From Propionibacteriales bacterium (GTDB lineage Bacteria; Actinomycetota; Actinomycetes; Propionibacteriales; Nocardioidaceae): 40,891 nt of DNA. The notes below the pieces were generated by a model that was not told the origin of the DNA, searched no databases, and saw nothing but the letters and a program-made list of their open reading frames with translations. The number at the start of each line of letters is the position of its first letter. Positions within the stretch are counted from its first letter, which is position 1. The stretch is taken from positions 1 through 40,891 of the forward strand of contig WHTJ01000037.1 of the NCBI GenBank assembly GCA_009377795.1, given 5' to 3'. A program made the translations under genes and the position numbers. Below, one piece after another: positions 113 to 33,195 of this stretch.

Positions 113-1009
113 TCATGTACGTCCTCTACGCCAAGTCCCCGCCGCGGACTGTGACGCATCCAGCAGTTCACGTCGCCACTTCTCGGTCTGGTGCAGCTCG
201 TTGAACGTGAAGATGTGGAGGCCGCGGATCTCGGTTCGAGCGTTCGACGCGGAAGTCTCGAGGCTTCGAGCGAGCTTTGTCGGGCCATACGCTCCGGGTA
301 GGAGAAAGCGCCACAGGAGGCTGCGCTGCTTCTGCAGGAAGCGCGCAGACTGACCGAGTCCCAGGCGGGATGAGATCCTGATGAGCTTCTGGCGATTCAC
401 CGGCCCCGGTAGACCTACGTGTACCGGTAGTTCGACACCTGCGCAGGAGATGTCCCGGGCCCACTCAGAGGTGGTCGTGGCGTTGAAACACATCTGCGTG
501 ACGATGCGCGTCGCATAGGGTGACTTCTGCTTGAGCGCCAGTTCGAGCGCCTGGTCGGGGATCCCCGCGCGACCTTCCGGATAGCCGGCGATGGCGACGT
601 CCTTGAACGGACGGCCCATGTTCTCCAGTGACCGCAACAGGGAGAATGCGTCGGGAAACCTCCCGACGGGGTGAGATGCATCCCCGCCGATCACCAACAC
701 TGCGTGGATGGACGCCTCTCGCAGCCGGGCTACCACTTCGGCCAAGTGACCCTCGTCTGACACGAGCCGGGCGGGTAGATGTGGGGCGACACTGTAGCCG
801 TGACCAGTCAGGCGTTCAGCGAGGCTCACCGTCACCGAGATCCCCTTGGCCTCGGTCACTGTGACGGTGAGGGGTATCGACGCCGGAACATCGGCCAAGA
901 CGGCCTCCTCTGTTCCCTTGAACGGCATCACCTCGTAGGTTGTATTGCACAGCAGGCTTCGAAGATCAGGCCGCTCGTGTACGGAGTCGATGCCGTCGGT
1001 GACACCCAT
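113..1009 (-). CDS. Methylenetetrahydrofolate reductase family protein
   Basis: The 298-aa product has the length and fold pattern of the MTHFR/MetF family, which interconverts 5-methyl- and 5,10-methylene-tetrahydrofolate with FAD. Family-like stretches are VLVIGGDASHPVGRF in the middle, the strand IAGYPEGR after it, and TQMCFNATTTSEW where MetF proteins read TQ.(F/C)F. The ATG at 1009 is preferred over upstream codons because GGAGGTGAG lies about 8 nt before it. The gene is downstream on the same strand as the GntR and DUF6282 genes and about 2.7 kb from a LigM-type demethylase. In Sphingobium SYK-6 a metF gene accompanies ligM, where LigM hands the aromatic methyl group to tetrahydrofolate. 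That pairing is established there and inferred here. The C-terminal third (residues 200-298) is Arg/Leu-rich and less typical, so a role as dedicated partner rather than housekeeping MetF is likely. Confidence 0.82.
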   Translation of the reverse strand: MGVTDGIDSVHERPDLRSLLCNTTYEVMPFKGTEEAVLADVPASIPLTVTVTEAKGISVTVSLAERLTGHGYSVAPHLPARLVSDEGHLAEVVARLREASIHAVLVIGGDASHPVGRFPDAFSLLRSLENMGRPFKDVAIAGYPEGRAGIPDQALELALKQKSPYATRIVTQMCFNATTTSEWARDISCAGVELPVHVGLPGPVNRQKLIRISSRLGLGQSARFLQKQRSLLWRFLLPGAYGPTKLARSLETSASNARTEIRGLHIFTFNELHQTEKWRRELLDASQSAAGTWRRGRT

Positions 1010-1209
1010 ACGCGTCTCACCTCCGTCGGACCGTCCGCGGCGCACCATGAGGCTAGGCCGGGCTGGACGGACCCTCCAGGGGCTAATGACGCCTTCGCTG
1101 CGCGCCAGTATGGCGAGCCGTGTAGGACAGATTGCCTACAGCGGTGCGGGCGTATAGATCCGTCGTCGACGGCGTGGGACGACGCTCGGCGCTGACCGGC
1201 GTTCGGCTC

Positions 1210-2263: not shown

Positions 2264-2944
2264 TCAGCCGGCGCCGGCCACGCTCGCCTCCGCGGCCTCC
2301 GCCTGGCGCAGGGCATCGATCACGCTCGCCAGGTGCCGGCGCGCGGCCCGGTCCGCGGCCGCGGTGTCGCGGGCGCAGATGGCCTCGATGATCGCGAGGT
2401 GCTCCGGCAGCGAGACCGAGGGCCGGCCGGGCTGCGTCGCCAGCCGGAACTGGTGGCGTACGCTCTGCGCGCGCAGCCGGTCGAGCACCCGCGCGGCGGT
2501 GCGCTGCCCGCTGAGCTCACGCACCCGCCGGTGCAGCAGCTCGTTCAGCCGGGAGTACCCGAACACGTCTCCGGCGGACACCGCCGCGCTCATGCGTTCG
2601 CCGATACTCTCGAGCTCGGCGATGCCGTCGTCATCGATGTGCTCGGCCGCCTTGGCCGCACACAGCGCCTCCAGCATCATGCGCACCTCCGAGATCTCGA
2701 TCGCATCATCGAGCGAGACGGCGCGGACCCGCGCGCCGCGGTTCTGGACCTTCTCGACGAGGCCCTCGTTGGTGAGCTCCAGCAACGACGACCGCACGGC
2801 CGCGCGGCTGGCGCCGAACATGTCGGACAGATCCGCTTCCACCAGCCTCTGGCCCGGTACGAAGTCCCCCCGAATGATGGCTTCCTTGATCGCGTCCGTG
2901 ACCCCGCCATGGGATGTGGGGCGCCGCTCATGGTTCGCTGCCAC
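2264..2944 (-). CDS. GntR-family transcriptional regulator, FCD subgroup
   Basis: The N-terminal winged helix-turn-helix (about residues 15-75) includes IIRGDFVPGQRLVEADLSD and GASRAAVRSSLLELTNEGLV. A C-terminal all-helical FCD ligand domain follows, with the typical ISEVRMMLEALCAAKAAE and NELLHRRVRELSG helices and a final SLPEHLAIIEAICARD helix carrying the conserved His. Such proteins are usually repressors that release DNA on binding a carboxylate metabolite. I place the start at the GTG at 2944 (226 aa), because AGGGGGT stands just upstream and the longer reading frame would run into the divergent gene's leader. It is divergent from the oxidoreductase at 3043, with candidate operators between them, and heads the DUF6282/MTHFR genes. 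A metabolite of the aromatic pathway is the probable effector, by inference. Confidence 0.88.
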   Translation of the reverse strand: MAANHERRPTSHGGVTDAIKEAIIRGDFVPGQRLVEADLSDMFGASRAAVRSSLLELTNEGLVEKVQNRGARVRAVSLDDAIEISEVRMMLEALCAAKAAEHIDDDGIAELESIGERMSAAVSAGDVFGYSRLNELLHRRVRELSGQRTAARVLDRLRAQSVRHQFRLATQPGRPSVSLPEHLAIIEAICARDTAAADRAARRHLASVIDALRQAEAAEASVAGAG

Positions 2945-2971
2945 AGGACCCCCTGCCGGTATGCCTACGAG

Positions 2972-3001
2972 ATTGTCGCCAATATTGTGGTCAGAGTACC
3001 A
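2972..3001. promoter_or_regulatory. Candidate GntR operator in divergent promoter
   Basis: Between the divergent GntR and oxidoreductase genes there are two overlapping dyads. CAATATTG (2980-2987) is a perfect 8-bp palindrome within ATTG-TCGC-CAAT. TGGT-N6-ACCA (2988-3001) uses the TGGT/ACCA half-sites known for FadR-type GntR proteins. Autoregulation is the usual arrangement for such regulators. Binding is not shown. Confidence 0.4.
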
Positions 3002-3042
3002 AGCGGGGTGTTCCGAGATCTCAGGTGGGAGAGGTAATCGCG

Positions 3043-3654
3043 ATGTCGTCTGCCGCACCAGTCATAGCCCTGCTCGGTTTCGGCGAGGCGGGTTCGGCGT
3101 TCGGCCGCGATCTGCTGCGGCGTGGTGTGACGGTACGGGTCTACGACCCCAAGGTGGTGGCCGAGCGCCCGGCGGTCGCCACCGACAGCGAGGCCGACGC
3201 GGCCCGCGGCGCGGACCTGGTGCTCAGCGTCAACAGCGCGCACGACGCGCCCGGCGCCCTCGCCTCCGGTATCCCGGGCGTCGAGCCGCACGCCGCCTGG
3301 GCGGACATGAACACCGCGTCGCCCAAGGCCAAGCAGCAGCTGGCGGCCACGGCCCGCGAGCACGGCATCCCGTTCGCGGACATCGCGATCATGGCACCGG
3401 TGCCCGGCAAGGGATGGTCGGTGCCGATGCTCGTGAGCGGATCGGCGGCGGAGCCGGTCGCGAACATGCTGCGAGAGCTCGGTGCCAGGATCGACGTCCA
3501 GCCCGGCCAGGCGGGTGCGGCGGCGCAACGCAAGCTGCTGCGCAGCGTGTTCTTCAAGGGGCTCGCCGCCGCGGTGTACGAGGCACTGGAGGCGGGCCGG
3601 GCCGCGGGTTGCGAACAGTGGCTGCACGACCACCTCGTCGAAGAACGGCAGTGA
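3043..3654 (+). CDS. NAD(P)-dependent oxidoreductase, 6PGDH/DUF1932-like, C-terminally truncated
   Basis: The protein opens with a Rossmann nucleotide-binding motif (LLGFGEAGSAFGRDLLRRG), continues with DMNTASPKAK and APVPGKGWSVPMLVSG, as in 6-phosphogluconate/beta-hydroxyacid dehydrogenase relatives, and enters a DUF1932-type helical domain (RKLLRSVFFKGLAAAVYEAL). The ATG at 3043 follows GGGAGAGG. At 203 aa it stops shortly after the catalytic-type Lys helix, whereas relatives run to about 270-300 aa. The last 60-90 residues of the substrate domain are therefore missing, and no continuation appears in the other frames before the convergent ligM gene ends at 3702. It could be a decaying gene or a shortened functional form. 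It is divergent from the GntR regulator and probably controlled by it. The substrate is unknown. Confidence 0.72.
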   Translation: MSSAAPVIALLGFGEAGSAFGRDLLRRGVTVRVYDPKVVAERPAVATDSEADAARGADLVLSVNSAHDAPGALASGIPGVEPHAAWADMNTASPKAKQQLAATAREHGIPFADIAIMAPVPGKGWSVPMLVSGSAAEPVANMLRELGARIDVQPGQAGAAAQRKLLRSVFFKGLAAAVYEALEAGRAAGCEQWLHDHLVEERQ

Positions 3655-3701: not shown

Positions 3702-5472
<1,771 letters not shown>

Positions 5473-6024
5473 GTGACCCACGTGATCAAGACCGTCAACC
5501 GGGCGCTCCACTATGTCGCCGGCGCGCTGATCATCGGCGTGATGGCGTTCACCGTCTACAACGTGCTCGGCCGCTCGCTGTTCGGCGCCCCCCTGCGCGG
5601 CACGGTGGAGCTCACGCAGATCGCCATGATCGGCGTCGTCTTTCTCGGCCTCGCCTACGCCCAGGACAAGAACAACCACATCGCCGTCGACCTGCTCTAC
5701 CAGCGGCTCGGCCGGCGCGGCCAGCTGGTGCTCGACGTGTTTTCTACCGTGCTGAGCATGCTCGTGCTGACCCTCGTCGCGTGGCGGCTCTACGACTACG
5801 CGGCTGTGCTGGATGCCGGGGGCCGCACCACAGCCTCCCGTGACATCCCGCTCTACCCCTTCGCCTACCTCGCCATCGTCGGCGTGCTCGCGTTCATCCT
5901 GGCGTACGCGACCACGCTGATCGAGCACCTTCGCGGAACCGGCCCCGACCGCGACACCAGTGCTGGTCCGGGCGGCCCGGACGGCCCAACCGACTCCGAC
6001 CTGACGACGCGGGCGCCGCTGTGA
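5473..6024 (+). CDS. dctQ: TRAP transporter small membrane subunit (DctQ)
   Basis: The 183-aa protein has four hydrophobic segments (about residues 12-35, 48-64, 85-110 and 122-146) and the DctQ-type NVLGRSLFGAPLRGTVELTQ and NNHIAVDLLYQRL stretches. DctQ pairs with the large DctM permease, and the pair accepts substrate from a DctP binding protein using an ion gradient. The GTG at 5473 is chosen because AGGAGA lies about 12 nt upstream and the membrane protein begins right after it. The stop overlaps the dctM start as GTGA, which indicates coupling. The C-terminal tail (residues 155-183) is hydrophilic and Gly/Pro-rich. The binding protein of this system is most likely the dctP at 11467. Confidence 0.85.
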   Translation: MTHVIKTVNRALHYVAGALIIGVMAFTVYNVLGRSLFGAPLRGTVELTQIAMIGVVFLGLAYAQDKNNHIAVDLLYQRLGRRGQLVLDVFSTVLSMLVLTLVAWRLYDYAAVLDAGGRTTASRDIPLYPFAYLAIVGVLAFILAYATTLIEHLRGTGPDRDTSAGPGGPDGPTDSDLTTRAPL

Positions 6025-7328
6025 CGCCCGAGATCGTCGGGGTAGTCGGCTTCGTCGCACTCCTGGTTCTACTCGCGCTGCGGGTGCAGGTGGGCATCGC
6101 CATGCTGACCGTGTCCCTTGTCGGCTACGCGTACGTGCTCACACCCGACGCCGCACTTGCCCGGCTCGGCTCGGACGCGTTCACCGGTGCCGCGACGTAC
6201 AGCCTCAGCGTGATCCCGCTGTTCGTCTTCATGGGATTGCTACTCGCGCAAGCCGCTCTGGGCAAGGATCTCTACGCGCTGCTGGACGCACTCCTCTGGC
6301 GGTTGCGCGGCGGGCTGGCGATGGCCACGATCGGCGCCTCGGCCATCTTCGGTTCGGTGAGCGGTTCGGCAGTGGCGTCCGCCTCGACGATGTCCGTGGT
6401 CGCCACCCCGGAGATGCGCCGGTACCGGTACGACCCCGGGCTGGCCGCCGCCTGCACGGCCGTCGGAGGAACGCTCGGCGCGCTGATCCCGCCCAGCGCC
6501 GTGCTCGTGCTCTACGGGATCCTCACCGAGGAACCCATCGGGCGGATCCTCATCGGCGGCATCCTGCCCGGCATCATGACCACGTTGGTGCTGATGGCCA
6601 CCGCCTGGCTGGTCGTGTGGCGGCGGCCCCACCTAGCCCCGGAGGTGAACCGGTCCAACCGGGAAGGACCGTCGATCCCCCGCCTCGCCGGCCGGGTCTG
6701 GGCGGTCCCCGTGATCTTCGGCCTGTCAATGGGGGGCCTGTACTTCGGTGTCTTCACACCGACCGAGGCCGGAGCCGTCGGTGCCGGGCTGGCCCTCCTC
6801 TACGGAGTACTCACGAGACGGCTCACCTGGTCGACGTTCTGGCTGGCCACCAGCCAGACGGTCCTGGTCACCGCGGTGATCTTCCTGGTTGTCGTCGCCA
6901 GCCGGATGTACGGCTTCTTCCTGTCCGTCACCCGCATCCCGCGCAACCTCGGCGAGTTCGTCGACAGGCTCGACATGGCGCCGTTCCTGGTGATCGCGGT
7001 GATCTTCCTGATCTACTTCGCGCTCGGCGCGCTGATGGACGAGATCGCGATCCTGGTCATCATGACGCCGATGATGTACCCGATCGTCACCGGCCTCGGC
7101 TACGACGGCGTCTGGTTCGGCGTGGTGTCGATCATGATGCTGCTGAGCGGCCTGCTCACACCGCCGGTCGGTTTGATCGCCTACGTGGTGAGCAGCATCA
7201 GCGGGGTGCCGGTCGCCCAGGTCTTCCGCTCGGTGGCGCCGTTCTGGGTCGGGCTGATCGTCGCGGTGGCGCTGGCCGCGGCGTTCCCGCAGATCGTGAT
7301 GTTCCTGCCGGACCTGATGCGCGGTTGA
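6021..7328 (+). CDS. dctM: TRAP transporter large permease subunit (DctM)
   Basis: The 435-aa integral membrane protein shows about 12 hydrophobic segments and DctM-typical stretches: FMGLLLAQAALGKDLY, GSVSGSAVASASTMSVV, GGTLGALIPPSAVLVLYG and FTPTEAGAVGAGLALLYG. Its length matches the family (about 425-440 aa). It is the translocating subunit of a TRAP importer for a carboxylate. The GTG start overlaps the dctQ stop. The neighbouring demethylase and ring-cleavage genes suggest an aromatic acid such as methylgallate or gallate as cargo, by context only. It is convergent with the dioxygenase gene ending at 7386. Confidence 0.9.
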   Translation: MTPEIVGVVGFVALLVLLALRVQVGIAMLTVSLVGYAYVLTPDAALARLGSDAFTGAATYSLSVIPLFVFMGLLLAQAALGKDLYALLDALLWRLRGGLAMATIGASAIFGSVSGSAVASASTMSVVATPEMRRYRYDPGLAAACTAVGGTLGALIPPSAVLVLYGILTEEPIGRILIGGILPGIMTTLVLMATAWLVVWRRPHLAPEVNRSNREGPSIPRLAGRVWAVPVIFGLSMGGLYFGVFTPTEAGAVGAGLALLYGVLTRRLTWSTFWLATSQTVLVTAVIFLVVVASRMYGFFLSVTRIPRNLGEFVDRLDMAPFLVIAVIFLIYFALGALMDEIAILVIMTPMMYPIVTGLGYDGVWFGVVSIMMLLSGLLTPPVGLIAYVVSSISGVPVAQVFRSVAPFWVGLIVAVALAAAFPQIVMFLPDLMRG

Positions 7329-7385: not shown

Positions 7386-8390
7386 CTACTCGGAGCCCTC
7401 AACCGGCGGGGTTCCGTGGGTGTGGAACGTCTCGATCGTCTTCATCCCCCACGCCTGACCCTTGCGCCGCTCGGCCTCCGTCCACTCGATCGTCGTCCAG
7501 TCCGGCGCGAGGATGAGCCTGGCGCCCGCGTTGCAGAACTCGAGGCGGTTGCCACCGGGCTCGTAGATGTAGAGGAAGAACGTCTGCTGAATGGCGTGCT
7601 TGTGTGGCCCGGACTCGATGAAGATGCCGTTCTCCAGGAAGATGTCAGCGGCCTTGAGGATGTCCTCGCGGGTGTCGGTGGCGAACGCCACGTGGTGCAG
7701 GCGGCCGGTGCTGCCGGTCCAGTCCTCGGAGTACACCAGGTCGTAGCTCTTGTTGGTGAAATGGAACCACTGCGCGGCGATCCGGCCGTTGTCGAGGCGG
7801 ATCAGTTCGGTGGCGCGACCGCCGAGAACATCGGCGACGAACCTCCCGTTCTTCTCCACGTCGGCGCCCAGGTAGTTGACGTGGTCGAGACGGCGCGCAT
7901 TGACCCCGCGGCCGGGGAACCGCTCCGCCTGATTCTTCAGCGCCGGCAGCGCCTCGTCGGGTGCCACATGCCAGGTCGTCTCGTAATAGATCTCCATCGG
8001 GTGACCGTCCGGATCGGTGAACCGGTAGGTAGGCCCGATACCGTGGCCACCGTCGGTCCAGCCGATGCCCCGACCGGCGGTCTCGATGGCGGCGACCCGG
8101 TGCTGGAGGGCCTCCTCGCTCGACGCGCGCAGCGCCACAGTGGCGATTCCCGACGTCTCGTGCGCGGTGAGCTTCAGGGTGAACCGCTCGTAGTCGTCCC
8201 AGGTGCGCAGGTAGACAGAGTCGCCGTCGCGGTCCACCTCCCGCATTGCCAGGATCTCGGAGAAGAACCACAGGCTCTGGTCGAACCGGGGCGTCAAGAG
8301 CTCGATGTGGCCGATGTGGGCGACATCCCGGAACGCGCTGCCGAGGAAGTCTGTGGTGCCGGAGCCGATGCCGTGGGTCGGGCGGTCCAT
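7386..8390 (-). CDS. VOC-fold (type I) extradiol ring-cleavage dioxygenase
   Basis: The 334-aa protein has two VOC modules in tandem, as in catechol 2,3-dioxygenase and BphC-type enzymes. The N-terminal module starts at VAHIGHIELLTP. The C-terminal module holds the Fe(II) 2-His-1-Glu triad, seen as RLDHVNYL, LHHVAFATD and GGNRLEF. FFLYIYEPGGN before the Glu is characteristic. AAAGGAG precedes the ATG. It is the last gene of the galB-galC-galD operon, 73 nt after galD. By position it should open the ring of gallate or a related catechol to give 4-oxalomesaconate. Known gallate dioxygenases (GalA, DesB) belong to the unrelated LigB (type II) family, so this would be a non-orthologous replacement. 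Cleavage of another catechol remains possible. Confidence 0.85.
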   Translation of the reverse strand: MDRPTHGIGSGTTDFLGSAFRDVAHIGHIELLTPRFDQSLWFFSEILAMREVDRDGDSVYLRTWDDYERFTLKLTAHETSGIATVALRASSEEALQHRVAAIETAGRGIGWTDGGHGIGPTYRFTDPDGHPMEIYYETTWHVAPDEALPALKNQAERFPGRGVNARRLDHVNYLGADVEKNGRFVADVLGGRATELIRLDNGRIAAQWFHFTNKSYDLVYSEDWTGSTGRLHHVAFATDTREDILKAADIFLENGIFIESGPHKHAIQQTFFLYIYEPGGNRLEFCNAGARLILAPDWTTIEWTEAERRKGQAWGMKTIETFHTHGTPPVEGSE

Positions 8391-8463
8391 TGCTGGACTC
8401 CTTTCTGCCGGGTCGTCGTACCGGGTCGGGTCGTCGTGCCGCGGGCGTCCGTCCGGGGGTCGG

Positions 8464-9552
8464 TCAGTACGAGCGTGGGAAGACGGTGCCGTCGAAGAGC
8501 TTGCGTGCGGTTCGCATGGCGGCCGAGGCCGTCGCCGTCGGGGACCGGCCGGTCAGGTCGAGCGCGACCGAGACGTCGAAGAAACCACTGGGGTGCTCGA
8601 TCCGCAGCGTGCCGGCGTCCTCCCCGCTGGCATTCGCCGACGGCAGGGCGGCGAGGTCGTGGCCGATCGTTCCGGGTAGCCGGATGCCGGCGCCGACGGT
8701 GGCCGCGCCCAGCACGCCGATCGCCCGGTGGCAGCGGACCGGGAGGAAGCTGCGGGTGGAGATGGCACCCCCGTCGCGGGCCGGCGACAGCAGCACCACC
8801 TTCGGAACGGTGGCCGACGGGTCCGCCGGCAGACCCATGAGCTCGGCCGCGGCCAGCCGGATCTCCAGTACGCGCTCGGCGAGGTCGGGCTTGGCCTCGA
8901 GTTCGGCGGGGTCCTCGGTTCCGGCCACGCCGAGGTCGGCCGCACGCAAGAGCACGGACGGCATGCCGTTGTCCACGCAGGTGACCGTCACGCCCGCCAC
9001 CTCGTCCTGCGGGTTGCCGGTGGGCAGCAACGCCCCGGTCGACGAGCCAGCGGTCCCCTCGAAGGTGAGCGTGATCGGCGCGGCCGTGCCAGGGACGCCG
9101 TTCATGGCGAGATCGCCGGCGTACTCGACCCGACCGCCGGGTGCGCCGAAATCGGCTACGGCCACGCTGCCGGTGTTGACCATCCGGATGCGCACGCTCG
9201 CCATGTCCGCCGGCGGCGGCACCAGTTCGCGTTCGACGGCGAATGGCCCGACGCCGGCGAGCAGGTTGCCGCAGTTCTGTCGGTCAGAGACCACGGCCTC
9301 GTCGACGGCCACCTGGAGGAACAGGTAGTCGACGTCGGTGGACCGGTCAGCCGACGGCGCGACCACCGCGACCTTGCTGGTCAGGGGGTGCCCACCGCCG
9401 ATGCCGTCGATCTGAGCCGGATCGGGGCTGCCCATGATCCGCAGCAGGAGAGCGTCGCGCTCGGCGCTGTCGGCAGGGAGGTCGTCGGCCAGGAAGTACG
9501 CCCCCTTGGATGTGCCGCCGCGCATGAGCATGCAGCGGATGCCGTCAGTCAT
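8464..9552 (-). CDS. galD: PrpF-family isomerase, probable 4-oxalomesaconate tautomerase (GalD-like)
   Basis: The 362-aa product is a PrpF/diaminopimelate-epimerase-fold protein. It starts with IRCMLMRGGTSKGAYFLADD, the PrpF signature, and has GIGGGHPLTSKVAVVAPS and RQNCGNLLAGVGPFAVE, where the Cys region forms part of the epimerase-like active site. GalD of Pseudomonas putida, in this family, interconverts keto and enol 4-oxalomesaconate so that GalB can hydrate it. The ATG at 9552 is chosen because the family motif starts within five residues and GGAAGGCGG lies upstream. It overlaps the galC stop by 8 nt, consistent with coupling. PrpF relatives also isomerise aconitates, but the flanking galB and galC genes favour GalD. 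Confidence 0.85.
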   Translation of the reverse strand: MTDGIRCMLMRGGTSKGAYFLADDLPADSAERDALLLRIMGSPDPAQIDGIGGGHPLTSKVAVVAPSADRSTDVDYLFLQVAVDEAVVSDRQNCGNLLAGVGPFAVERELVPPPADMASVRIRMVNTGSVAVADFGAPGGRVEYAGDLAMNGVPGTAAPITLTFEGTAGSSTGALLPTGNPQDEVAGVTVTCVDNGMPSVLLRAADLGVAGTEDPAELEAKPDLAERVLEIRLAAAELMGLPADPSATVPKVVLLSPARDGGAISTRSFLPVRCHRAIGVLGAATVGAGIRLPGTIGHDLAALPSANASGEDAGTLRIEHPSGFFDVSVALDLTGRSPTATASAAMRTARKLFDGTVFPRSY

Positions 9553-10237
9553 CGTGGGCCGCCTTCCGGTACTCGACACCGAGATCGGCGAGCAGCGACC
9601 GCAGGCCGTACCGGTCGAGGCCCAATTCGCCCGCCGCCAGCGCGGCGCGGGTCTGCTCCTCCTTCGCCACGCGGGCGGTGGCCGCCTCGATCGCGACGGC
9701 CGTGTCGCGCCGCGGGACCAGCACGATCCCGTCCTCGTCGGCGACCACGACGTCCCCGGGCCGCACCACAGTCCGGCCGATCGCGACCGGGACGTTCACC
9801 GAGCCCGCGGTGGCCTTGACCGTGCCCTGGGCGCTGACCGCAGCCGACCAGACGGGGAACGACATCGACCGCAGCTCCTCGGTGTCGCGGACGCCGGTGG
9901 TGGTGACCAGTCCGCGAACCCCGCGGGACTGGAACGAGGTGGCGAGCAGCTCGCCGAAGACACCGTCGGTCGACTCCGAGGTCGTGGTGACCACGAGAAG
10001 GTCGCCCGGGCGGCACTGCTCGACGGCGGCGTGGATCATCAGGTTGTCTCCGGGCCAGCATTTGACGGTGACGGCCGTACCGGCGACGCGCACGCCGGTC
10101 TGGATCGGCCGCAGCCGCGGGTCGAGCAGGCCAACCCGGCCGATCGCCTCGTGAATGGTGGCGACTCCGAACTGCTGCAGCCGGTCAACCTCGTCAAGCG
10201 ACGCCCGGGGTGGGCCGGTGATTATGACCCGTCCCAT
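9545..10237 (-). CDS. galC: RraA-fold 4-carboxy-4-hydroxy-2-oxoadipate aldolase (GalC/LigK-like)
   Basis: The 230-aa protein is a class II pyruvate aldolase of the RraA/HMG aldolase type. It has FGELLATSFQSRGVRGLV followed by TTTGVRDTEEL, where the Arg-Asp pair of G.RD binds substrate and Mg2+, and VVRPGDVVVADEDGIVLVPR near the end. LigK/GalC splits 4-carboxy-4-hydroxy-2-oxoadipate to pyruvate and oxaloacetate, and also decarboxylates oxaloacetate. Length fits the family (about 225-240 aa). It sits 25 nt after galB and overlaps galD. The operon order hydratase-aldolase-tautomerase-dioxygenase fits a complete lower pathway. Confusion with the RNase E inhibitor RraA is unlikely because the protein is longer and lies in this context. 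Confidence 0.87.
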   Translation of the reverse strand: MGRVIITGPPRASLDEVDRLQQFGVATIHEAIGRVGLLDPRLRPIQTGVRVAGTAVTVKCWPGDNLMIHAAVEQCRPGDLLVVTTTSESTDGVFGELLATSFQSRGVRGLVTTTGVRDTEELRSMSFPVWSAAVSAQGTVKATAGSVNVPVAIGRTVVRPGDVVVADEDGIVLVPRRDTAVAIEAATARVAKEEQTRAALAAGELGLDRYGLRSLLADLGVEYRKAAHDD

Positions 10238-10262
10238 ACCATCCCTCGTCAGTGAGTCGTCG

Positions 10263-10997
10263 TCAGTTCAGGACCGCCGTGACCTGCGGGTAGTACCGCA
10301 TGAATGCCTCGGCCTTGGCGTCGGTGGGGAACCCGAGGTTGGGGCCCGCGTTGCGCCGCAGCTGGACACCCCGGCGGGTCGCGAGGTCGGAGTAGTAGCT
10401 CCACATGTGCTGCTGCGCCGGCAGGCACTTCATCGCCCGTTCCTTGGCGGGGTATGCCTCGGTAATGTCCAGCAGGACGTTCGGCTTGAAATCGCACTGT
10501 TCGGGCTGGTGTGGCTCGAAGAAGAACACCGGTGGTGCGCCGAGCGGATCGCCGGGCGCGTCGTAGCCGATGGCCTGGGCGAGGACCCGGGCGTGCAGCG
10601 CGAGCTGGGCCGCAACCGGGTGGTCGCCGTTGTACGGGTCGACCAGCGGATGGGTGAGCACCACGTCCGGTACGACCTCACGGTAGATACGGACGAGCGC
10701 GTCGGTGAGATCGTGGCTGGGCACGAGCGGGTAGTCGCCTGCGTCGAGGAAGCGTACTTCGGCGCCGAGCTCCTTGGCGGCCGCTTCCGCCTCGGAGCGG
10801 CGCATCGCCGTGATCTCCTCGAGGCATTTGCCGGCCCGCCACGCGCTCGCCGACTCGCCGCGCTCACCGTACGAGAGGCACACCACGACAGCACGCTCGC
10901 CGCGCTGGGTCGACGAGGCGATGACGCCCCCGGCGCGCCAGACAAAGTCGCCGGCGTGCGCGCTGACGACCAGTACGGTCCGCTCCGCGTTGCTCAC
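10263..10997 (-). CDS. galB: PIG-L-fold 4-oxalomesaconate hydratase (GalB-like)
   Basis: The 244-aa protein has the PIG-L/LmbE zinc-hydrolase fold. Its metal motif reads SAHAGDFVWRAGG instead of the deacetylase-type AHPDD. It then has VVCLSYGERGES, FLDAGDYPLVPSHDLTD and VLTHPLVDPYNGDHPVAAQL, which supplies the later His ligands. GalB from Pseudomonas putida is a PIG-L relative that hydrates 4-oxalomesaconate rather than deacetylating sugars, and the GERGES and DFVWRAGG features fit it. I chose the GTG at 10997 because AAGGAACG precedes it and the fold starts 7 residues later. It is the first gene of the operon, facing a divergent regulatory region with two dyads. Confidence 0.87.
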   Translation of the reverse strand: MSNAERTVLVVSAHAGDFVWRAGGVIASSTQRGERAVVVCLSYGERGESASAWRAGKCLEEITAMRRSEAEAAAKELGAEVRFLDAGDYPLVPSHDLTDALVRIYREVVPDVVLTHPLVDPYNGDHPVAAQLALHARVLAQAIGYDAPGDPLGAPPVFFFEPHQPEQCDFKPNVLLDITEAYPAKERAMKCLPAQQHMWSYYSDLATRRGVQLRRNAGPNLGFPTDAKAEAFMRYYPQVTAVLN

Positions 10998-11064
10998 GAC
11001 GCGTTCCTTCCGCCGATTTGACGGTCCTGACCTGTGGAGCAAAGCACAGTCCGCACAAAATCGT

Positions 11065-11181: not shown

Positions 11182-11427
<246 letters not shown>

Positions 11428-11466: not shown

Positions 11467-12543
11467 GTGAGACGACTGACATCGAGGTGGGGCGGAGCGA
11501 CAGCGGCCGCCATGGCGGCGATGCTGATCCTCGCCGCCTGTGGGGACGGTGATGACACCGCCGCTCCGGAAGATGGGACGGAGGACCCGGCCGGGGCGGA
11601 GGACATGGGTGACCCGGTCACCCTCAACTTGGCCCACCCGTTCCCGGCTGAGCACCACATCCAGGTGAACATGCTCGAGCCGTGGATCGAGGAGGTGGCC
11701 GCCGCCACGGACGGCACGGTCACCATCGAGACCCACCCGGCAGGAGCCCTGACGGCGCCCGAAGATGCCTACGAGAACGCGGCGGCCGGTGCCATCGACA
11801 TCGGGTGGGCGCTGAATGGGTACACGCCCGGCCGGTTCCCGCTGACCGACGTGGTGGAGATGCCGTTCACCTTCGAGAGCGCCACACAGGCCACCGACGC
11901 GCTCTGGGGCCTCTACGAGGAGTTTCCTGAGTTCCAGGAGGAGTACGGCGACGTCAAGGTCCTCGCCCTCTACACGCACGACGTCGGCAACCTGTACACC
12001 GTCGGGAACGAGATCACCGAGCCTGACCTGTCCGGGCTGACCCTGCGTGCGCCGAGTCCGACTCTGACCGCAGTGATCGAGGCCATGGGCGGGGCAGGCG
12101 TCGGGATGCCGGCACCGGAGCTCTACGACTCGCTGGACCGCGGCGTGATCGACGGCCTCATGATCGGCGACACCGGAGTCAACAGCTTCGCGCTGTACGA
12201 GGTCGTCGACCACGTGACGGTGGGCAACTTCTTCGTCGGTGCGGAGTTCATCGTGATGAACCAGGGCGCTTGGGACTCGCTCTCGTCGGCCCAGCAGGAC
12301 GCGATCGACGGGCTCATCGGGCGCGAGTGGTCGCAAGTCGGCGCCGAGAGCTACGACCGGGGCAACCAGGAGGACGTGGACTTCGAGGAGTGGGGATTCA
12401 TGGTCACCGACGTGCGCGACGACATCGAGCCCTGGCGCGAGGCCGTTCAGCCGGTGATCGACGACTGGATCGCCGAACGTGAGGCCGACGGACTTCCGGG
12501 CCAGGCCATCTACGACCGGCTGCAGGAGATCGTCGGCAACTGA
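11467..12543 (+). CDS. dctP: TRAP transporter substrate-binding lipoprotein (DctP)
   Basis: The 358-aa protein has a lipoprotein signal with lipobox LAAC (Cys25), an acidic linker (residues 26-48), and a DctP/TRAP periplasmic-binding fold beginning VTLNLAHPFPAEHHIQVN. Further on come GAIDIGWALNGYTPGRFPL, LTLRAPSPTLTAVIEAMG (the strand with the conserved Arg that binds the substrate carboxylate) and ELYDSLDRGVIDGLMIGDTG. It delivers a carboxylate to DctQM. The GTG start follows AGAGAGGAG. It lies 4 kb from dctQM, across the gal operon and after a ligM fragment, suggesting rearrangement of a once compact ligM-TRAP unit. Followed by two hairpins. Confidence 0.9.
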   Translation: MRRLTSRWGGATAAAMAAMLILAACGDGDDTAAPEDGTEDPAGAEDMGDPVTLNLAHPFPAEHHIQVNMLEPWIEEVAAATDGTVTIETHPAGALTAPEDAYENAAAGAIDIGWALNGYTPGRFPLTDVVEMPFTFESATQATDALWGLYEEFPEFQEEYGDVKVLALYTHDVGNLYTVGNEITEPDLSGLTLRAPSPTLTAVIEAMGGAGVGMPAPELYDSLDRGVIDGLMIGDTGVNSFALYEVVDHVTVGNFFVGAEFIVMNQGAWDSLSSAQQDAIDGLIGREWSQVGAESYDRGNQEDVDFEEWGFMVTDVRDDIEPWREAVQPVIDDWIAEREADGLPGQAIYDRLQEIVGN

Positions 12544-13522: not shown

Positions 13523-13924
13523 TCAGGAATCGGATTCTGTGTCGAGTCGGAACGTGGGTAGCCCGTCGTTGAAGACGGCGACCACTTCGGCGCCCGGATG
13601 CACATCCTCGATGTCCTCGGCCTCGACCCGTGAAAGCAGCCTCGCACCTTCCCTGGTCTCGACGACGGCCACCGCAAAGGGCACCTGTGTACCGGCGCCG
13701 AGGCGGCGAACGATGGAGACGGCAAGGAGGCGGCCGTGGCCGCTGGACACACGTAAGCGGGCGTCACTGGAGCCGCAGTGGGCGCAGCGCGCTCGCGAGT
13801 AGACCCACGACGCACCACATTCGCACTGCCAGATCCGAAGTTCTTCCTCGGAAAGTCCGACCCACCATGCAGACGAGTCGGAGGTGCCCATTGAAGGCGG
13901 GGAACTGGGCCAGTCGCGTGTCAT
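13523..13924 (-). CDS. Zn-ribbon/OB-fold protein (DUF35 family)
   Basis: The 133-aa protein has an N-terminal zinc ribbon (WQCECG at about 33-37 and CAHCG at 47-51) followed by an OB-fold (GRLLAVSIVRRLG, PFAVAVVETREGARLLSRV). This is the DUF35 layout. DUF35 proteins partner with thiolase-fold enzymes. In steroid side-chain degradation the DUF35 domain of ChsH2 is required by the aldolase Ltp2. Here the start overlaps the stop of the thiolase-fold gene (ATGA), supporting a physical complex. The first zinc pair has CxC spacing rather than the more common CxxC. Last gene of a three-gene operon, followed by a hairpin. Confidence 0.85.
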   Translation of the reverse strand: MTRDWPSSPPSMGTSDSSAWWVGLSEEELRIWQCECGASWVYSRARCAHCGSSDARLRVSSGHGRLLAVSIVRRLGAGTQVPFAVAVVETREGARLLSRVEAEDIEDVHPGAEVVAVFNDGLPTFRLDTESDS

Positions 13925-15099
13925 CGGTGCGTCTCCCCCGAACCGAGAAGAAGAGTCGCGTGCGTACCCATCACGCCTCCGATGCCGTGCACCAGGGCAG
14001 TCTTGGCTCCTTGCACCTGGCGCTCGCCAGCCACGCCATGGAGCTGGTGGATCCCTTCAACCACGTGGAAGAGGCCTCCCGCAACTCCAGGATGACCTGC
14101 GGAGAGCAGTCCCCCATGAGTAGTCACCGGGAGCCTGGAACCAGGGCCTATCCCCTGCTCGGCGACCATCGCACCGGCTTCGCCCTTGTCACAGAACCCT
14201 AGGTCCTCGAGCAGTATCAGCACGGCGATGGTGAAGCAGTCGTAGAGCTCAAGCACGTCGATGTCCTTCGGCTGCAGCCCGGCCATCCGAAAGGCCGCAA
14301 CTCCGGACTCGACTGCGCCGCAGCTCGTGGGGTCCTCGGCGTCACCGATCCACGCGTGTCGTGTCCCATACCCGACGCCCAGTATCCCTACCTCGTGGGA
14401 CGCAGACGCACGCTCCGAGCTGGTCACAACGACGGCAGCGGCCCCATCGGCGATGACTGAACAGTCGAGTTTGTGCAGGGGGTCTGACACCACCGGACTG
14501 CTCAGAATCTCCTCGAGCGTCAACAGCTCCCGTTTGAAGGCATTGGGGTTGAGAGATGCATGGGCACGTATGTCACGCGCGATGCAGGCCAGCTGCTGCC
14601 GGGTTGTCCCAAAGCGTCGCATGTGCATGTCCGTGATGAGCGCATACGTCGTAGGCAGAAGGGCTTCGTGGCCGGCCTCGAACTCCGGATGCATGGGACC
14701 GTTCTGCGCGAGCTGCTCGACGACGCGTGGACCCGATGTTCGGGTGAGCAGGTCCTGTCCTCCCAGCACGACCACTGTCTCGGCCAGCCCATGCTCGACC
14801 GCCATGACCGCGTGATGAACCATGGCCACTCCGGATGCCCCGGCCAAATCGATGTTCGCGAGATAGCTGGGTTGCATGGACAGGTAGTGTGCGAGCGCCT
14901 CAACCGGGTTGGACCATCCGTCCGTACGCGAGGTGCACGTGATCAGACCGTCGACTTTCGACCAGTCGAGCCCTGCCTCAGAGAGGGCATCCGACGCCGC
15001 CGCGGCCATGAGTGGGAGTGATGAGCCGGTGTTCAACCGTCCGAGGGGCGTGGTCGCCGCCCCTGCGATCACCGCCTCCCTGTGATTGCGGCTCCTCAT
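13921..15099 (-). CDS. Thiolase-fold protein lacking catalytic cysteines; probable aldolase or atypical thiolase
   Basis: The 392-aa protein has the thiolase fold of the SCP2/acetyl-CoA acetyltransferase group: VIAGAATTPLGRL at the start, LYDCFTIAVLILLEDLGF, then THGGLLSAGHPGVAGGLFHV. The N-terminal nucleophile motif, normally CASG, reads GASG (Cys replaced by Gly87). The C-terminal Cys motif is replaced by HGIGGVMG. Ltp2-type retro-aldolases also lack these Cys residues and need a DUF35 partner, which is the next gene here. It probably cleaves a beta-hydroxyacyl-CoA rather than performing thiolysis, by inference. The ATG at 15099 overlaps the stop of the CoA synthetase gene (ATGA). The longer frame to 15216 lacks family sequence. 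Confidence 0.85.
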   Translation of the reverse strand: MRSRNHREAVIAGAATTPLGRLNTGSSLPLMAAAASDALSEAGLDWSKVDGLITCTSRTDGWSNPVEALAHYLSMQPSYLANIDLAGASGVAMVHHAVMAVEHGLAETVVVLGGQDLLTRTSGPRVVEQLAQNGPMHPEFEAGHEALLPTTYALITDMHMRRFGTTRQQLACIARDIRAHASLNPNAFKRELLTLEEILSSPVVSDPLHKLDCSVIADGAAAVVVTSSERASASHEVGILGVGYGTRHAWIGDAEDPTSCGAVESGVAAFRMAGLQPKDIDVLELYDCFTIAVLILLEDLGFCDKGEAGAMVAEQGIGPGSRLPVTTHGGLLSAGHPGVAGGLFHVVEGIHQLHGVAGERQVQGAKTALVHGIGGVMGTHATLLLGSGETHR

Positions 15100-17339
15100 G
15101 TCTGGCTCTTCAGGGTCACAAGGCCGTCCACGACACTGACGCCCATGCCCTTCTGATGGACGATGAGGGGGTTGATATCCACCTCTTCCAGCACGTCGCG
15201 GAGGCTGAACAGCCACCTGGAGAAATCTGAGATTGCCTGGGCAGCTGCCTCCACATCAGACGGTGAAGCACCCCGCACTCCATCCAGGACCTGGTTGGCA
15301 CGCAATTCACGAAGCATCACCTCGGCAACTCTCGCCGAGACGGGCGCCAACCTGATTACCCGGTCATTGAAGACCTCCGCCAGCACCCCACCCATACCCA
15401 CGACCACCACTGGCCCGAAGACGGGATCACACCTCCCACCCAGCAGAAGTTCAAGGCCAGGCTCGGCCATCCGCTGCACCAGCACCTCGAATGCTGCCCC
15501 AGGCCACGAACGGGTGAAGGCCGACACCAGCTCGTCGAACGCGGCGCCGGTCTCATCCTCGTCTGCAAGTCCGAGTCGGACCAGTCCGAAGTCTGTCTTG
15601 TGCGGAGCCGACGGAGAACAGATCTTGAGCGCCACCGGGTATCCCATGGTGGCAGCGGCCGCCGTGGCCTCCTCCTGCGTCCCGGCCATCCGCCACGCGG
15701 GTAGGGGGAGACCGATGCTGGCGAACTCCCCGAACAGATTTCCCTGCAGGGCCAGATCTGGGCGCTGGTTATCACCGAGGGTCCCCTGAGGTCGAGCGAA
15801 CGCCCTGAGCCGTTCACGGTCGTGTCCGATCAGGAACTCGTGGTGGCTGATCGCGGATTCCAGGGCACGAAGAAGCTGACTTGGACGGGAAAAGGTAGGG
15901 ATCCCGCTCCTCACGAGGTTTTCCGGCTCAAGTTGCTTCTCCAACGCGCCACCGACCCAAAGTGCAACGTGCGGGCGATCAACCGATTCCGTGATCTCAC
16001 GCAGCGTTTCGATAATCGTGTCCGGCACATGCGTGAGAATGGACACGACCACATCGACGACGGGATCATTGGCTACTGCCGACAGCGACTTCACGACAAG
16101 GTCCGGGTCGTTGATACCCGCGGTTGTGGCATCCAGGGGATTACCGATCTGAGCGTAGTCAGGCAGGAGTGGCGACAGCCGTTCCGATGTACGCGCCGAC
16201 AAAGCAGGGAAGGAGAACCCACTCTCGCCGGCCAGATCACTCAGCAAGGCGTTGTTCCCTCCCGATACGGAAACACCACCGAGACGGCGGCCGCGGATGG
16301 GCTGACGCAGGCTAAACAGCTGCGCCGCATCGACGAGCTCATCGGCGTCTCTTACACGAATGACGCCGAACTCCTGGCAGGCAGCGTCGACCACGTCGTC
16401 GGAACCCGTGACGGCTCCCGTGTGGGAGAGAGCCGCGCGCGCACCCGCTTCCGACCGTCCGATCTTCAGCAGTAGCAAGGGGACGCCTCGTTCGGCTGCC
16501 TCTACGGCCAACGCCGCGAACTCCCAACCACTCCTGATGCTCTCCAGCACCAGCGCGACAGCGCCGGTGTCGGGGAGACTGACGAGGTAGCGAGCGAAGT
16601 CCAAGGCGCCCAGGTCCGCGTCGTTGCCCGAACTGATCTGGTGGGAGACGCCGACACCAACCCTGTGGGCATTCCACATGACGTTGACCTGGCCCAGCCC
16701 CCCGCTCTGGCTCACCACGGCCATCCTGCCCGGTGGGCACGGCCAGTCCAGAGTCGCAGTGGTCGTCAGTGCGAACCCGGCCGGGACGTTGATGATGCCG
16801 TTGCAGTTGGGGCCGATGACTCGTAGCCCGGTCCGCCGCACAACATCGACGATGCCTGTCTGCGCGGATCCCCCTGCCGCCGTGCCCAGCTCCGCGTACC
16901 CGCCGGAGAAGACCGTGGCCACGTGGGCCCCTGCGTTATGGGCGTCCTCCAAACATCCCACGACGCCGCCTGAGGGTACGGCGACGGCGACGTGGTCCGG
17001 CGCTCCAGGGAGGGCACCAAGCGTCGGGTATGCGGGGATGCCCATGACCGTCTCACGTCGTGGGTTGACGGGCCAGATGTCTCCCCCGAAGCCTGAGCCG
17101 ACCAGACGAGCCATGAGGCGACCGCCGAACTTCGAGGAGTCCTCGCTGGCCCCAACCACCGCAACGCTACGCGGTGCGAAGACCGGCCACAGATCTGAAG
17201 GCGCCAGTGATTCCGTCCGGGCCTGATGTGCTGCGGCCGGAGGGGTTGGAGAGCACGTTCCAAGATGACCGTTCATGACGCCTGTGCCCGACCACCGGTC
17301 CAACGATTGATCGCTCCCGCCACCAGGATCCTTCTCCAT
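15096..17339 (-). CDS. ADP-forming acyl-CoA synthetase (acetate-CoA ligase family)
   Basis: The 747-aa single-chain enzyme has a CoA-binding domain (VFAPRSVAVVGASEDSSKFG), succinyl-CoA synthetase-like domains (VIGPNCNGIINVP, VSQSGGLGQ), the phospho-His loop (SHTGAVTGSDDVVDAAC), and a C-terminal ATP-grasp domain (GYPVALKICSPSAPHKTDFG and ELLLGGRCDPVFGPVVVVG). It makes an acyl-CoA from an acid, ATP and CoA, or runs in reverse. Homology starts about 50 residues in, so the start is uncertain: ATG 17339 has GGGG 5 nt upstream, and ATG 17276 is also possible. It heads the operon with the thiolase-fold and OB-fold genes. Two GTTCC-N7-GGAAC sites lie in its upstream region. Confidence 0.85.
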   Translation of the reverse strand: MEKDPGGGSDQSLDRWSGTGVMNGHLGTCSPTPPAAAHQARTESLAPSDLWPVFAPRSVAVVGASEDSSKFGGRLMARLVGSGFGGDIWPVNPRRETVMGIPAYPTLGALPGAPDHVAVAVPSGGVVGCLEDAHNAGAHVATVFSGGYAELGTAAGGSAQTGIVDVVRRTGLRVIGPNCNGIINVPAGFALTTTATLDWPCPPGRMAVVSQSGGLGQVNVMWNAHRVGVGVSHQISSGNDADLGALDFARYLVSLPDTGAVALVLESIRSGWEFAALAVEAAERGVPLLLLKIGRSEAGARAALSHTGAVTGSDDVVDAACQEFGVIRVRDADELVDAAQLFSLRQPIRGRRLGGVSVSGGNNALLSDLAGESGFSFPALSARTSERLSPLLPDYAQIGNPLDATTAGINDPDLVVKSLSAVANDPVVDVVVSILTHVPDTIIETLREITESVDRPHVALWVGGALEKQLEPENLVRSGIPTFSRPSQLLRALESAISHHEFLIGHDRERLRAFARPQGTLGDNQRPDLALQGNLFGEFASIGLPLPAWRMAGTQEEATAAAATMGYPVALKICSPSAPHKTDFGLVRLGLADEDETGAAFDELVSAFTRSWPGAAFEVLVQRMAEPGLELLLGGRCDPVFGPVVVVGMGGVLAEVFNDRVIRLAPVSARVAEVMLRELRANQVLDGVRGASPSDVEAAAQAISDFSRWLFSLRDVLEEVDINPLIVHQKGMGVSVVDGLVTLKSQT

Positions 17340-33010: not shown

Positions 33011-33190
33011 GCCATTTTGGACCAGCGGCATGGCCTTCTTGGCTCAATGTGTGAGCCTTGTGGTCCGTCTTCTACACAGACTCTTGAATGACCGCACACG
33101 GCTGGGTGACCTTTGGGTTGGCAAAGTGTTCCTCCGCGTTTCGGGTTGCGATGACCCGCGACTGAGACGTGGCTTTGGCCCAGGAGGTGG
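33001..33190 (+). repeat. 190-bp inverted duplication, right arm
   Basis: This is the partner of 32422-32611 in inverted orientation. Its last bases (AGGAGGTGG, 33182-33190) are the ribosome binding site of the multicopper oxidase gene, so the repeat covers that gene's whole leader and probably its promoter. Confidence 0.85.
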
Positions 33191-33195
33191 ACTGC

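What the first reader, a model, noticed from the sequence alone, without database searches (positions are those of the whole stretch)
7386..10997. Gallate lower pathway wired to a type I (VOC) dioxygenase
GalB-, GalC- and GalD-like genes form one operon, and its fourth gene is a ring-cleavage dioxygenase. Characterised gallate dioxygenases (GalA, DesB) are LigB-fold type II enzymes, yet this one is VOC-fold type I with an intact 2-His-1-Glu triad. If it cleaves gallate or 3-O-methylgallate to feed 4-oxalomesaconate to GalB/GalD, it would be a non-orthologous replacement and an unusual actinobacterial route.
Basis: partly seen in the sequence, partly recalled or inferred. Interest (0 to 1): 0.72.

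Follow-up and report, generated by a model that had tools for sequence, protein, structure and literature searches.

The report
Alternative gallate ring-opening enzyme operon
This bacterium carries a gene set for breaking down gallic acid (from tannins and lignin) in which the usual ring-opening enzyme appears to be replaced by an unrelated one, and the same replacement recurs in many other bacteria, so a common step of plant-carbon breakdown has probably been overlooked; no enzyme test has been done yet.

Summary
On the minus strand, window 7386-11042 holds galB-galC-galD-VOC. GalD and GalC pass curated NCBI cut-offs, GalB's best solved relative is 4-oxalmesaconate hydratase, and the fourth protein is a two-domain type I extradiol dioxygenase with the 2-His-1-Glu triad. 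Nearby lie LigM, an MTHFR-like gene, TRAP transporter genes and a relic of a second LigM.

The arrangement recurs. Of 80 relatives (62-79% identity), 47 have GalB, GalC and GalD near the VOC gene; none has a LigB-type gene there. In 396 genomes of the phylum, 8 of 9 with certified GalD have the VOC gene next to it; the ninth has a LigB cluster instead. Tannase genes lie near it in Agrobacterium pAt and 7 of 80 loci. Fourteen of 47 VOC genomes searched have no LigB-family match.

Best reading: a non-orthologous gallate dioxygenase, probably giving 4-oxalomesaconate. It is not specific to actinobacteria. The clade has Tyr where studied relatives have the catalytic His (His200 of HPCD). Substrate and product are untested; 3-O-methylgallate remains possible, and some relatives lack gal genes.

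The parts
7386..8390 (-). VOC type I extradiol dioxygenase, proposed gallate dioxygenase (334 aa); triad H170, H233, E284; Y216 at the catalytic-His position; clade-typical H263, R291, R308
8464..9579 (-). GalD/LigU-like 4-oxalomesaconate tautomerase/isomerase (PrpF family); start codon may be further in
9545..10237 (-). GalC/LigK-like 4-carboxy-4-hydroxy-2-oxoadipate aldolase (RraA family)
10263..11042 (-). GalB-like 4-oxalomesaconate hydratase (PIG-L/LmbE family); start uncertain, GTG near 10997 likely
11221..11346 (+). relic of a second LigM-type gene (42 aa, 81% identical to LigM residues 33-74), divergent to galB
3702..5192 (-). LigM vanillate/3-O-methylgallate O-demethylase (tetrahydrofolate-dependent)
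113..1048 (-). methylenetetrahydrofolate-reductase-like protein (46 bits, far under the cut-off), plausible partner of LigM
5500..6024 (+). TRAP transporter small permease DctQ
6021..7328 (+). TRAP transporter large permease DctM
11467..12543 (+). TRAP transporter solute-binding protein DctP
2264..3058 (-). GntR-family regulator, recurrent neighbour of the module
3043..3654 (+). NAD(P)-binding dehydrogenase related to DUF1932 proteins, shorter at the C-terminus than its relatives; recurrent neighbour, role unknown

Best explanation
The operon is a gallate catabolic unit in which a VOC-fold type I extradiol dioxygenase takes the place of the LigB-fold gallate dioxygenase (GalA/DesB). Proposed flow: a TRAP transporter imports a lignin- or tannin-derived aromatic acid. 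LigM, working with folate enzymes, removes the methyl group of 3-O-methylgallate. The VOC enzyme binds gallate through two vicinal oxygens on Fe(II) or Mn(II) (2-His-1-Glu) and, with O2, opens the ring to 4-oxalomesaconate. GalD tautomerises or isomerises it, GalB hydrates it to 4-carboxy-4-hydroxy-2-oxoadipate, and GalC splits that to pyruvate and oxaloacetate. SHOWN here: gene identities, operon order, conservation, co-occurrence, absence of a GalA-like gene from the host assembly. INFERRED: substrate, cleavage site, product, metal, transport substrate, and the role of Tyr216 with His263/Arg291 in a site rebuilt for a carboxylated trihydroxybenzene.
For: (1) Operon and family scores. (2) Same partners in different gene orders: galB-galC-galD-VOC in 35 of 80 loci and several permutations in others; galB-VOC-galC-galD in Agrobacterium, A. 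vitis, Thioclava and Rhizobium; VOC-galB-galC-galD in Roseibium. (3) Tannase near it in pAt of Agrobacterium and in 7 of 80 loci, all PF07519 at 335 bits or more. (4) 14 of 47 VOC genomes searched have no PF02900 match at E 0.001, and three of these also carry the tannase (L013, L041, L054); 4 of 47 have a match above 200 bits. (5) In 396 phylum genomes, 8 of 9 with certified GalD have the VOC gene adjacent; the ninth has a class III extradiol beta subunit (502 bits, cut-off 317), two amidohydrolases, GalD and GalC together. (6) The host has PcaG/PcaH-like genes on one contig with PcaB-, PcaD- and PcaIJ-like ORFs (read by eye), so protocatechuate has its own route; it has one copy of this VOC gene. 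(7) LigM in the window and near 17 of 80 relatives, in 12 of these directly beside and divergent from galB, where the window keeps a LigM relic. (8) The VOC clade is separated from AphC, Thermus C23O, XylE/LapB and HPCD (95/90 support for the 91-row clade) and has its own residue signature.
Against: No assay. 14 of 80 loci have no gal gene nearby: 11 of one Bradyrhizobium-type clade, two Sinomonas (LigM but no gal genes; one of them, G432, has a 305.6-bit LigB elsewhere), and one with its contig end 197 bp upstream; L084 has molybdo-hydroxylase genes beside the VOC gene and its genome has no GalD. At 430 bits or more, 8 further phylum genomes have the VOC protein without a GalD match; of 4 fetched, 3 have GalB and GalC beside it and one has no gal gene on its 8-kb contig. 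Roseomonas keeps a class III extradiol gene one gene away. In alphaproteobacteria only 4 of 39 genomes with certified GalD have the VOC gene; 15 of 39 have a strong LigB (152 bits or more) within 10 kb of GalD; 16 of 39 have neither. An actinobacterial LigB-type protocatechuate 4,5-dioxygenase is known to convert gallate too (PMC8431788, passages). Loss of the catalytic His could mean altered chemistry; one gal-linked relative (L105) keeps the His.
Confidence: 0.77

Rival explanations
1. The VOC enzyme cleaves 3-O-methylgallate (or both it and gallate), giving 2-pyrone-4,6-dicarboxylate or a methyl ester of 4-oxalomesaconate that then enters GalD/GalB/GalC; LigM mainly serves vanillate.
For: LigM (vanillate/3-O-methylgallate O-demethylase) in the window and near 17 of 80 relatives; amidohydrolases of the sulfomuconolactone-hydrolase type (LigI-like, the kind that would open a pyrone; label inferred) in 5 of 80 loci. 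In SYK-6, 3-O-methylgallate is opened by DesZ/LigAB to such products (PMC6888825, passages).
Against: Tannase-linked loci deliver gallate, not 3-O-methylgallate; 63 of 80 loci have no LigM within 9.5 kb; the LigI-like gene is not found in 75 of 80 loci nor in the window.
Confidence: 0.12
2. It is a protocatechuate 4,5- (or 2,3-) dioxygenase of type I whose product is oxidised by the DUF1932 dehydrogenase to a pyrone and then reaches 4-oxalomesaconate.
For: A DUF1932-type dehydrogenase is a recurrent neighbour (28 of 80 loci; also in Agrobacterium, Thioclava, Roseomonas, Methylobacterium); LigM makes protocatechuate from vanillate.
Against: The host has PcaG/PcaH-like genes; a LigI-like pyrone hydrolase is not found in 75 of 80 loci or in the window; tannase linkage points to gallate.
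Confidence: 0.06
3. An ordinary catechol 2,3-dioxygenase that happens to sit beside the gal genes.
For: TIGR03211 score 318.2, only 2 bits under the cut-off; public annotation of several relatives as catechol 2,3-dioxygenase.
Against: Recurrent coupling to galBCD across phyla with different gene orders; no 2-hydroxymuconate pathway genes seen beside it, unlike the Thermus C23O with dmpG and acetaldehyde dehydrogenase; different residues from XylE, AphC, LapB and HPCD at 216, 263, 291 and 308.
Confidence: 0.05

Closest known systems
GalA (Pseudomonas putida KT2440) / DesB (Sphingobium SYK-6) gallate dioxygenases
   Same: proposed reaction and the partner genes GalB/GalC/GalD (or LigK/LigU)
   Different: those are LigB-fold type II enzymes (DesB: PMC3962378 passages; AromaDeg, PMC4250580 passages, lists gallate dioxygenases under the LigB superfamily); this is VOC-fold type I
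AphC alkylcatechol dioxygenase of Rhodococcus RHA1 (3lm4, 7q2a)
   Same: same fold over nearly the whole length (Z 43.6, 315 residues, rmsd 1.8), metal triad
   Different: 33% identity; His instead of Tyr at position 216; Tyr instead of Arg at 291
Homoprotocatechuate 2,3-dioxygenase HPCD
   Same: type I enzyme acting on a carboxylated catechol; HPCD Arg293 (carboxylate role recalled) aligns with Lys310, but XylE also has Lys there, so this says little
   Different: catalytic His200 replaced by Tyr216; 26-28% identity
PDB 9wgj (labelled 'Catechol 1,2-dioxygenase')
   Same: closest solved sequence, 403 bits; also has Tyr at 216 and Arg at 308; joins the clade at 98/95 support
   Different: branches outside the 91-row clade; Ser263, Tyr291; title, organism and any function paper not seen
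LigM of Sphingobium SYK-6 (5x1i)
   Same: 703 bits over nearly the full length; in SYK-6 ligM forms an operon with metF (PMC6888825 passages), and an MTHFR-like gene lies in this window
   Different: sits with a VOC-GalBCD operon instead of DesB/LigAB

Membership tests
Type I (VOC) extradiol dioxygenase | two VOC domains with the extradiol-dioxygenase fold | tested here: met
   PF00903 in two stretches; model pLDDT 83 with Z 34-44 to AphC, C23O and HPCD entries
Type I (VOC) extradiol dioxygenase | 2-His-1-Glu metal triad | tested here: met
   H170, H233, E284 align with XylE, HPCD, AphC, LapB
Type I (VOC) extradiol dioxygenase | second-sphere catalytic His (His200 HPCD, His199 XylE) | tested here: not met
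   Tyr216 in 91 of 91 rows of the clade; His in 8 of 8 outgroup rows; 9wgj has Tyr; L105 and L106, more distant, have His
Catechol 2,3-dioxygenase equivalog TIGR03211 | score over the curated cut-off | tested here: not met
   318.2 versus 320.2 bits
LigB-type gallate dioxygenase (GalA/DesB) | LigB fold / PF02900 | tested here: not met
   the VOC protein matches only PF00903 in Pfam; neither of the host's two PF02900 genes is GalA-like
Gallate dioxygenase (by function) | gallate to 4-oxalomesaconate | not testable with these tools
   needs enzyme assay
gal lower pathway | 4-oxalomesaconate tautomerase GalD | tested here: met
   NF033377 474.1 over 440; 6p3j 378 bits
gal lower pathway | CHA aldolase GalC | tested here: met
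   NF006731 325.3 over 179, though TIGR02798 292.6 is under 304.5; 3noj 251 bits
gal lower pathway | 4-oxalomesaconate hydratase GalB | tested here: met
   by similarity only: 5cgz 247 bits; 49% identical to a Pantoea protein annotated galB
Protocatechuate 4,5-cleavage (LigABCIJKU) | LigA subunit in the host | tested here: inconclusive
   PF07746 0 matches, but its control rang nowhere
Protocatechuate 4,5-cleavage (LigABCIJKU) | LigC dehydrogenase and LigI hydrolase in the host genome | not tested
   no whole-genome search made; only the window was checked for a LigI-like protein, none at E 1e-5
LigM O-demethylase | score over the curated cut-off | tested here: met
   NF047885 883.7 over 580

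The most novel reading that the evidence does not exclude
A VOC-fold clade spread over Actinomycetota and plasmids of Alpha- and Gammaproteobacteria is the main gallate dioxygenase of actinomycetes, convergent with LigB-type GalA, and opens the trihydroxylated ring with a tyrosine where studied type I extradiol enzymes use a catalytic histidine.
Probability: 0.6. Interest if true: 0.72.

Novelty: new variant of a known kind. Interest (0 to 1): 0.62.

Why it matters
Gallate is a hub for tannin and syringyl-lignin breakdown, and the gallate dioxygenases met in the papers seen here are LigB-fold. If this clade does the job, many genomes now annotated only with a generic catechol 2,3-dioxygenase or 'VOC family protein' gain a complete gallate pathway, lignin-valorisation work gains a new enzyme type, and the missing catalytic His makes a clean test of how extradiol cleavage manages proton transfer.

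Tried and rejected
Literature: nothing on a type I/VOC gallate dioxygenase showed in the listings of eight searches of the held open-access library. I read passages of seven papers (PMC8671467, PMC9867520, PMC4250580, PMC8431788, PMC10760822, PMC3962378, PMC6888825) and no others; papers in subscription journals are not covered. 9wgj: no paper; it is not listed, whose library ends in April 2026, so its title is unknown. Bacillus ligniniphilus BLC23O as a precedent: no activity on protocatechuate or pyrogallol, gallate not among the substrates listed (PMC8671467 passages). LigB-family genes of the host as gallate dioxygenase: rejected. LigA absence: inconclusive. LigI-like amidohydrolase as a general replacement of GalB: rejected; of the 80 loci only 4 without GalB have it, and L013 and L014 score under the cut-off of the sulfomuconolactone hydrolase model. 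Tyr216 as an absolute marker of gal linkage: rejected, L105 has GalB and GalC and His. Lys310 as a carboxylate-binding marker of the clade: weakened, XylE has Lys there too. Tree: the outgroup branches are long, so only the separation of the clade is used.
Full report
WHAT IS THERE. The window's minus strand encodes, in order of transcription, GalB (10263-11042), GalC (9545-10237), GalD (8464-9579) and a VOC dioxygenase (7386-8390), with gaps of 25, -35 and 73 bp. Family scores make GalD a certified 4-oxalomesaconate tautomerase (474.1 over 440) and GalC a certified CHA aldolase by NF006731 (325.3 over 179), though 12 bits under the TIGR02798 cut-off. Best solved relatives agree: 5cgz 4-oxalmesaconate hydratase for GalB (247 bits), 6p3j OMA delta-isomerase for GalD (378 bits), 3noj CHA aldolase for GalC (251 bits). 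The VOC protein scores 318.2 on the catechol 2,3-dioxygenase model, just under its cut-off of 320.2, and its predicted structure (mean pLDDT 83) matches AphC (Z 43.6), XylE (38.9) and HPCD (34-36) over nearly its whole length.

SURROUNDINGS. LigM (883.7 bits over a cut-off of 580; 703 bits to the solved LigM), an MTHFR-like gene (46 bits, far under the cut-off), a GntR regulator, a short DUF1932-related dehydrogenase and a three-part TRAP transporter flank the operon. Between galB and dctP, at 11221-11346 on the plus strand, lies a relic of a second LigM: 42 residues, 81% identical to LigM. In 12 of the 80 relatives' loci an intact LigM lies directly beside galB in the divergent orientation, most of them Microbacterium, so the relic looks like the remains of that arrangement (inference).

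The host assembly (96.8% complete) has two LigB-superfamily genes. One resembles 4,5-DOPA dioxygenase (158 bits; cut-off 233), the other is a 285-aa divergent protein scoring 75.9 bits on the gallate dioxygenase model with a cut-off of 412. No gal gene lies in the 20 kb around the second. There is one copy of the VOC gene. The host has three PF00775 intradiol matches: two adjacent on a 10-kb contig, one on another contig. The ORFs beside the pair (read by eye: PcaB-, PcaD- and CoA-transferase-like) look like a beta-ketoadipate cluster, so protocatechuate, the other LigM product, has its own route.

CONSERVATION. Within 9.5 kb of the VOC gene, GalD is found in 64 of 80, GalC in 62, GalB in 50, all three in 47, two in 16, one in 3, none in 14; GntR in 47, DUF1932 in 28, LigM in 17; a relative of the Roseomonas class III extradiol gene or of the small gene before it in 0 of 80 (contigs differ in length, and 64 of 80 have 6 kb on both sides). 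The commonest order is galB-galC-galD-VOC (35 of 80). On plasmids the order differs: galB-VOC-galC-galD in Agrobacterium pAt, A. vitis, Thioclava and Rhizobium Q54, VOC-galB-galC-galD in Roseibium, split over about 8 kb in Pantoea piersonii, only GalC in Methylobacterium, and no nearby gal gene in Pantoea At-9b. The same partnership in different orders argues for function rather than common descent alone.

TANNASE. The Agrobacterium pAt operon is followed by a tannase gene. Five of 80 loci have a tannase-like gene at 250 bits or more to it, two more score 137-165; these seven and the pAt gene are all PF07519 at 335 bits or more. More distant tannases were not sought. Tannases release gallate (established knowledge).

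PHYLOGENETIC PROFILE. In 396 genomes of the phylum, 17 have any GalD match and 9 pass its cut-off. VOC matches of 500 bits or more occur in 8 of these 9, 42-124 bp from the GalD match, and in none of the other 387 genomes (one search scored the best five candidates of each genome). The ninth, G349, has a 273-bit LigB 2.3 kb from GalD; that protein is a class III extradiol beta subunit by NF009903 (502 over 317), and a small gene with weak similarity to the one in Roseomonas, two amidohydrolases, GalD and GalC lie with it, which looks like the classical protocatechuate 4,5-cleavage layout. At a looser threshold 8 more genomes have a VOC match of 430-470 bits without a GalD match. Of four fetched, three have GalB and GalC beside the VOC gene, two of them LigM too, and one has none on a short contig. 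In 385 genomes of the class of a Bradyrhizobium (alphaproteobacteria), 39 have certified GalD. Of these 4 have the VOC gene, three within 2.1 kb of GalD; 15 have a LigB of 152 bits or more within 10 kb of GalD (two of them are among the 4); 6 have one elsewhere and no VOC; 16 have neither. So in that class the VOC version is a minority solution.

GENOMES WITHOUT LIGB. Fourteen have no PF02900 match at E 0.001, and all 14 carry GalC, GalD and VOC at the locus. Three of the 14 (L013 Arthrobacter agilis, L041 Streptacidiphilus, L054 Microbacterium) also carry the tannase. Four of 47 have a match above 200 bits. A tannase and 4-oxalomesaconate enzymes in a genome without any LigB-type match leave the VOC protein as the obvious ring opener; draft genomes may of course miss genes.

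PHYLOGENY AND ACTIVE SITE. In a 100-row tree the 91 gal-type rows (window included) form one clade (95/90), with 9wgj next to it (98/95), apart from AphC/Thermus/Rhodococcus, XylE/LapB and HPCD; outgroup branches are long. The residue aligned with the catalytic His200 of HPCD and His199 of XylE is Tyr in all 91 rows and in 9wgj, and His in the 8 others. Passages seen state that His200 accepts and passes the proton and that without it the HPCD rate is vanishingly small (PMC10760822), and that the catalytic His of DesB (type II) corresponds in position to that of BphC (PMC3962378, figure legend). The clade also has His263, Arg291 and Arg308; XylE, HPCD, AphC and LapB have other residues at all three, 9wgj at the first two. 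Lys310 aligns with HPCD Arg293 (whose part in carboxylate binding is recalled), but XylE also has Lys there, so it is weak evidence. That Arg291 or Lys310 holds the gallate carboxylate is inference. Limits: the Tyr is not an absolute marker, since the distant gal-linked L105 keeps His, and the model has low confidence at 313-324.

RESULTS AGAINST. Fourteen of 80 loci lack gal genes nearby: eleven of a Bradyrhizobium-type clade, Sinomonas L064 and L079, and L022 at a contig end. L084 has molybdo-hydroxylase genes beside the VOC gene, and its genome has no GalD match. The Sinomonas L064 genome has a 305.6-bit LigB elsewhere. Roseomonas has a class III extradiol gene one gene away from the VOC gene, so there the VOC enzyme may do something else or share the work. 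An actinobacterial LigB-type protocatechuate 4,5-dioxygenase also turns gallate into 4-oxalomesaconate (PMC8431788, passages), so LigB-type gallate cleavage exists in this phylum too. The DUF1932 dehydrogenase recurs without an explained role.

VERDICT. Real, conserved and functionally coherent: most likely a non-orthologous (VOC, type I) gallate dioxygenase in an otherwise known pathway. No report of it showed in eight searches of open-access papers; work in journals not held, or behind PDB 9wgj, may exist. On rechecking I lowered the main confidence from 0.78 to 0.77 and raised the catechol-dioxygenase rival from 0.04 to 0.05, because Lys310 proved not to be special to the clade.

Noticed in passing
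window 11221-11346 (+): Relic of a second LigM-type O-demethylase gene between galB and dctP, 82% identical in DNA over 123 bp to the intact ligM.
   Followed up: yes
window 3043-3654 (+): DUF1932-related dehydrogenase of 203 aa; six relatives with open frames of 258-326 aa align only up to its end, so the C-terminal part seems missing.
   Followed up: partly
L103, L104, L105: In other families of the phylum (f18, f42) a VOC-GalB-GalC group without a GalD match, with LigM nearby in L103 and L104; the tautomerase step may be done by something else.
   Followed up: partly
L076: The record titled Frankia sp. RB7 carries a VOC gene placed inside the Bradyrhizobium rows of the tree on a very short branch; probably contamination of that assembly.
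   Followed up: no
L018: Record titled Rhodococcus MAG, but the tree tool's taxonomy calls it Cyanobacteriota; mislabelled or mixed assembly.
   Followed up: no
L002 / L093 (host contig C149): A divergent LigB-like protein beside a thiolase-like and a short ORF (by eye); the window has a thiolase and a short ORF at 13523-15216 too.
   Followed up: no
L006 and nine of the 80 loci (e.g. L027, L037, L054): A MetE-like (Meth_synt_2) protein recurs near the gal-VOC module, possibly a second methyl-handling enzyme.
   Followed up: no
window 33169-37806 (+): A 1545-aa open reading frame that reads like a secreted multicopper-oxidase-type protein (by eye; not searched).
   Followed up: no
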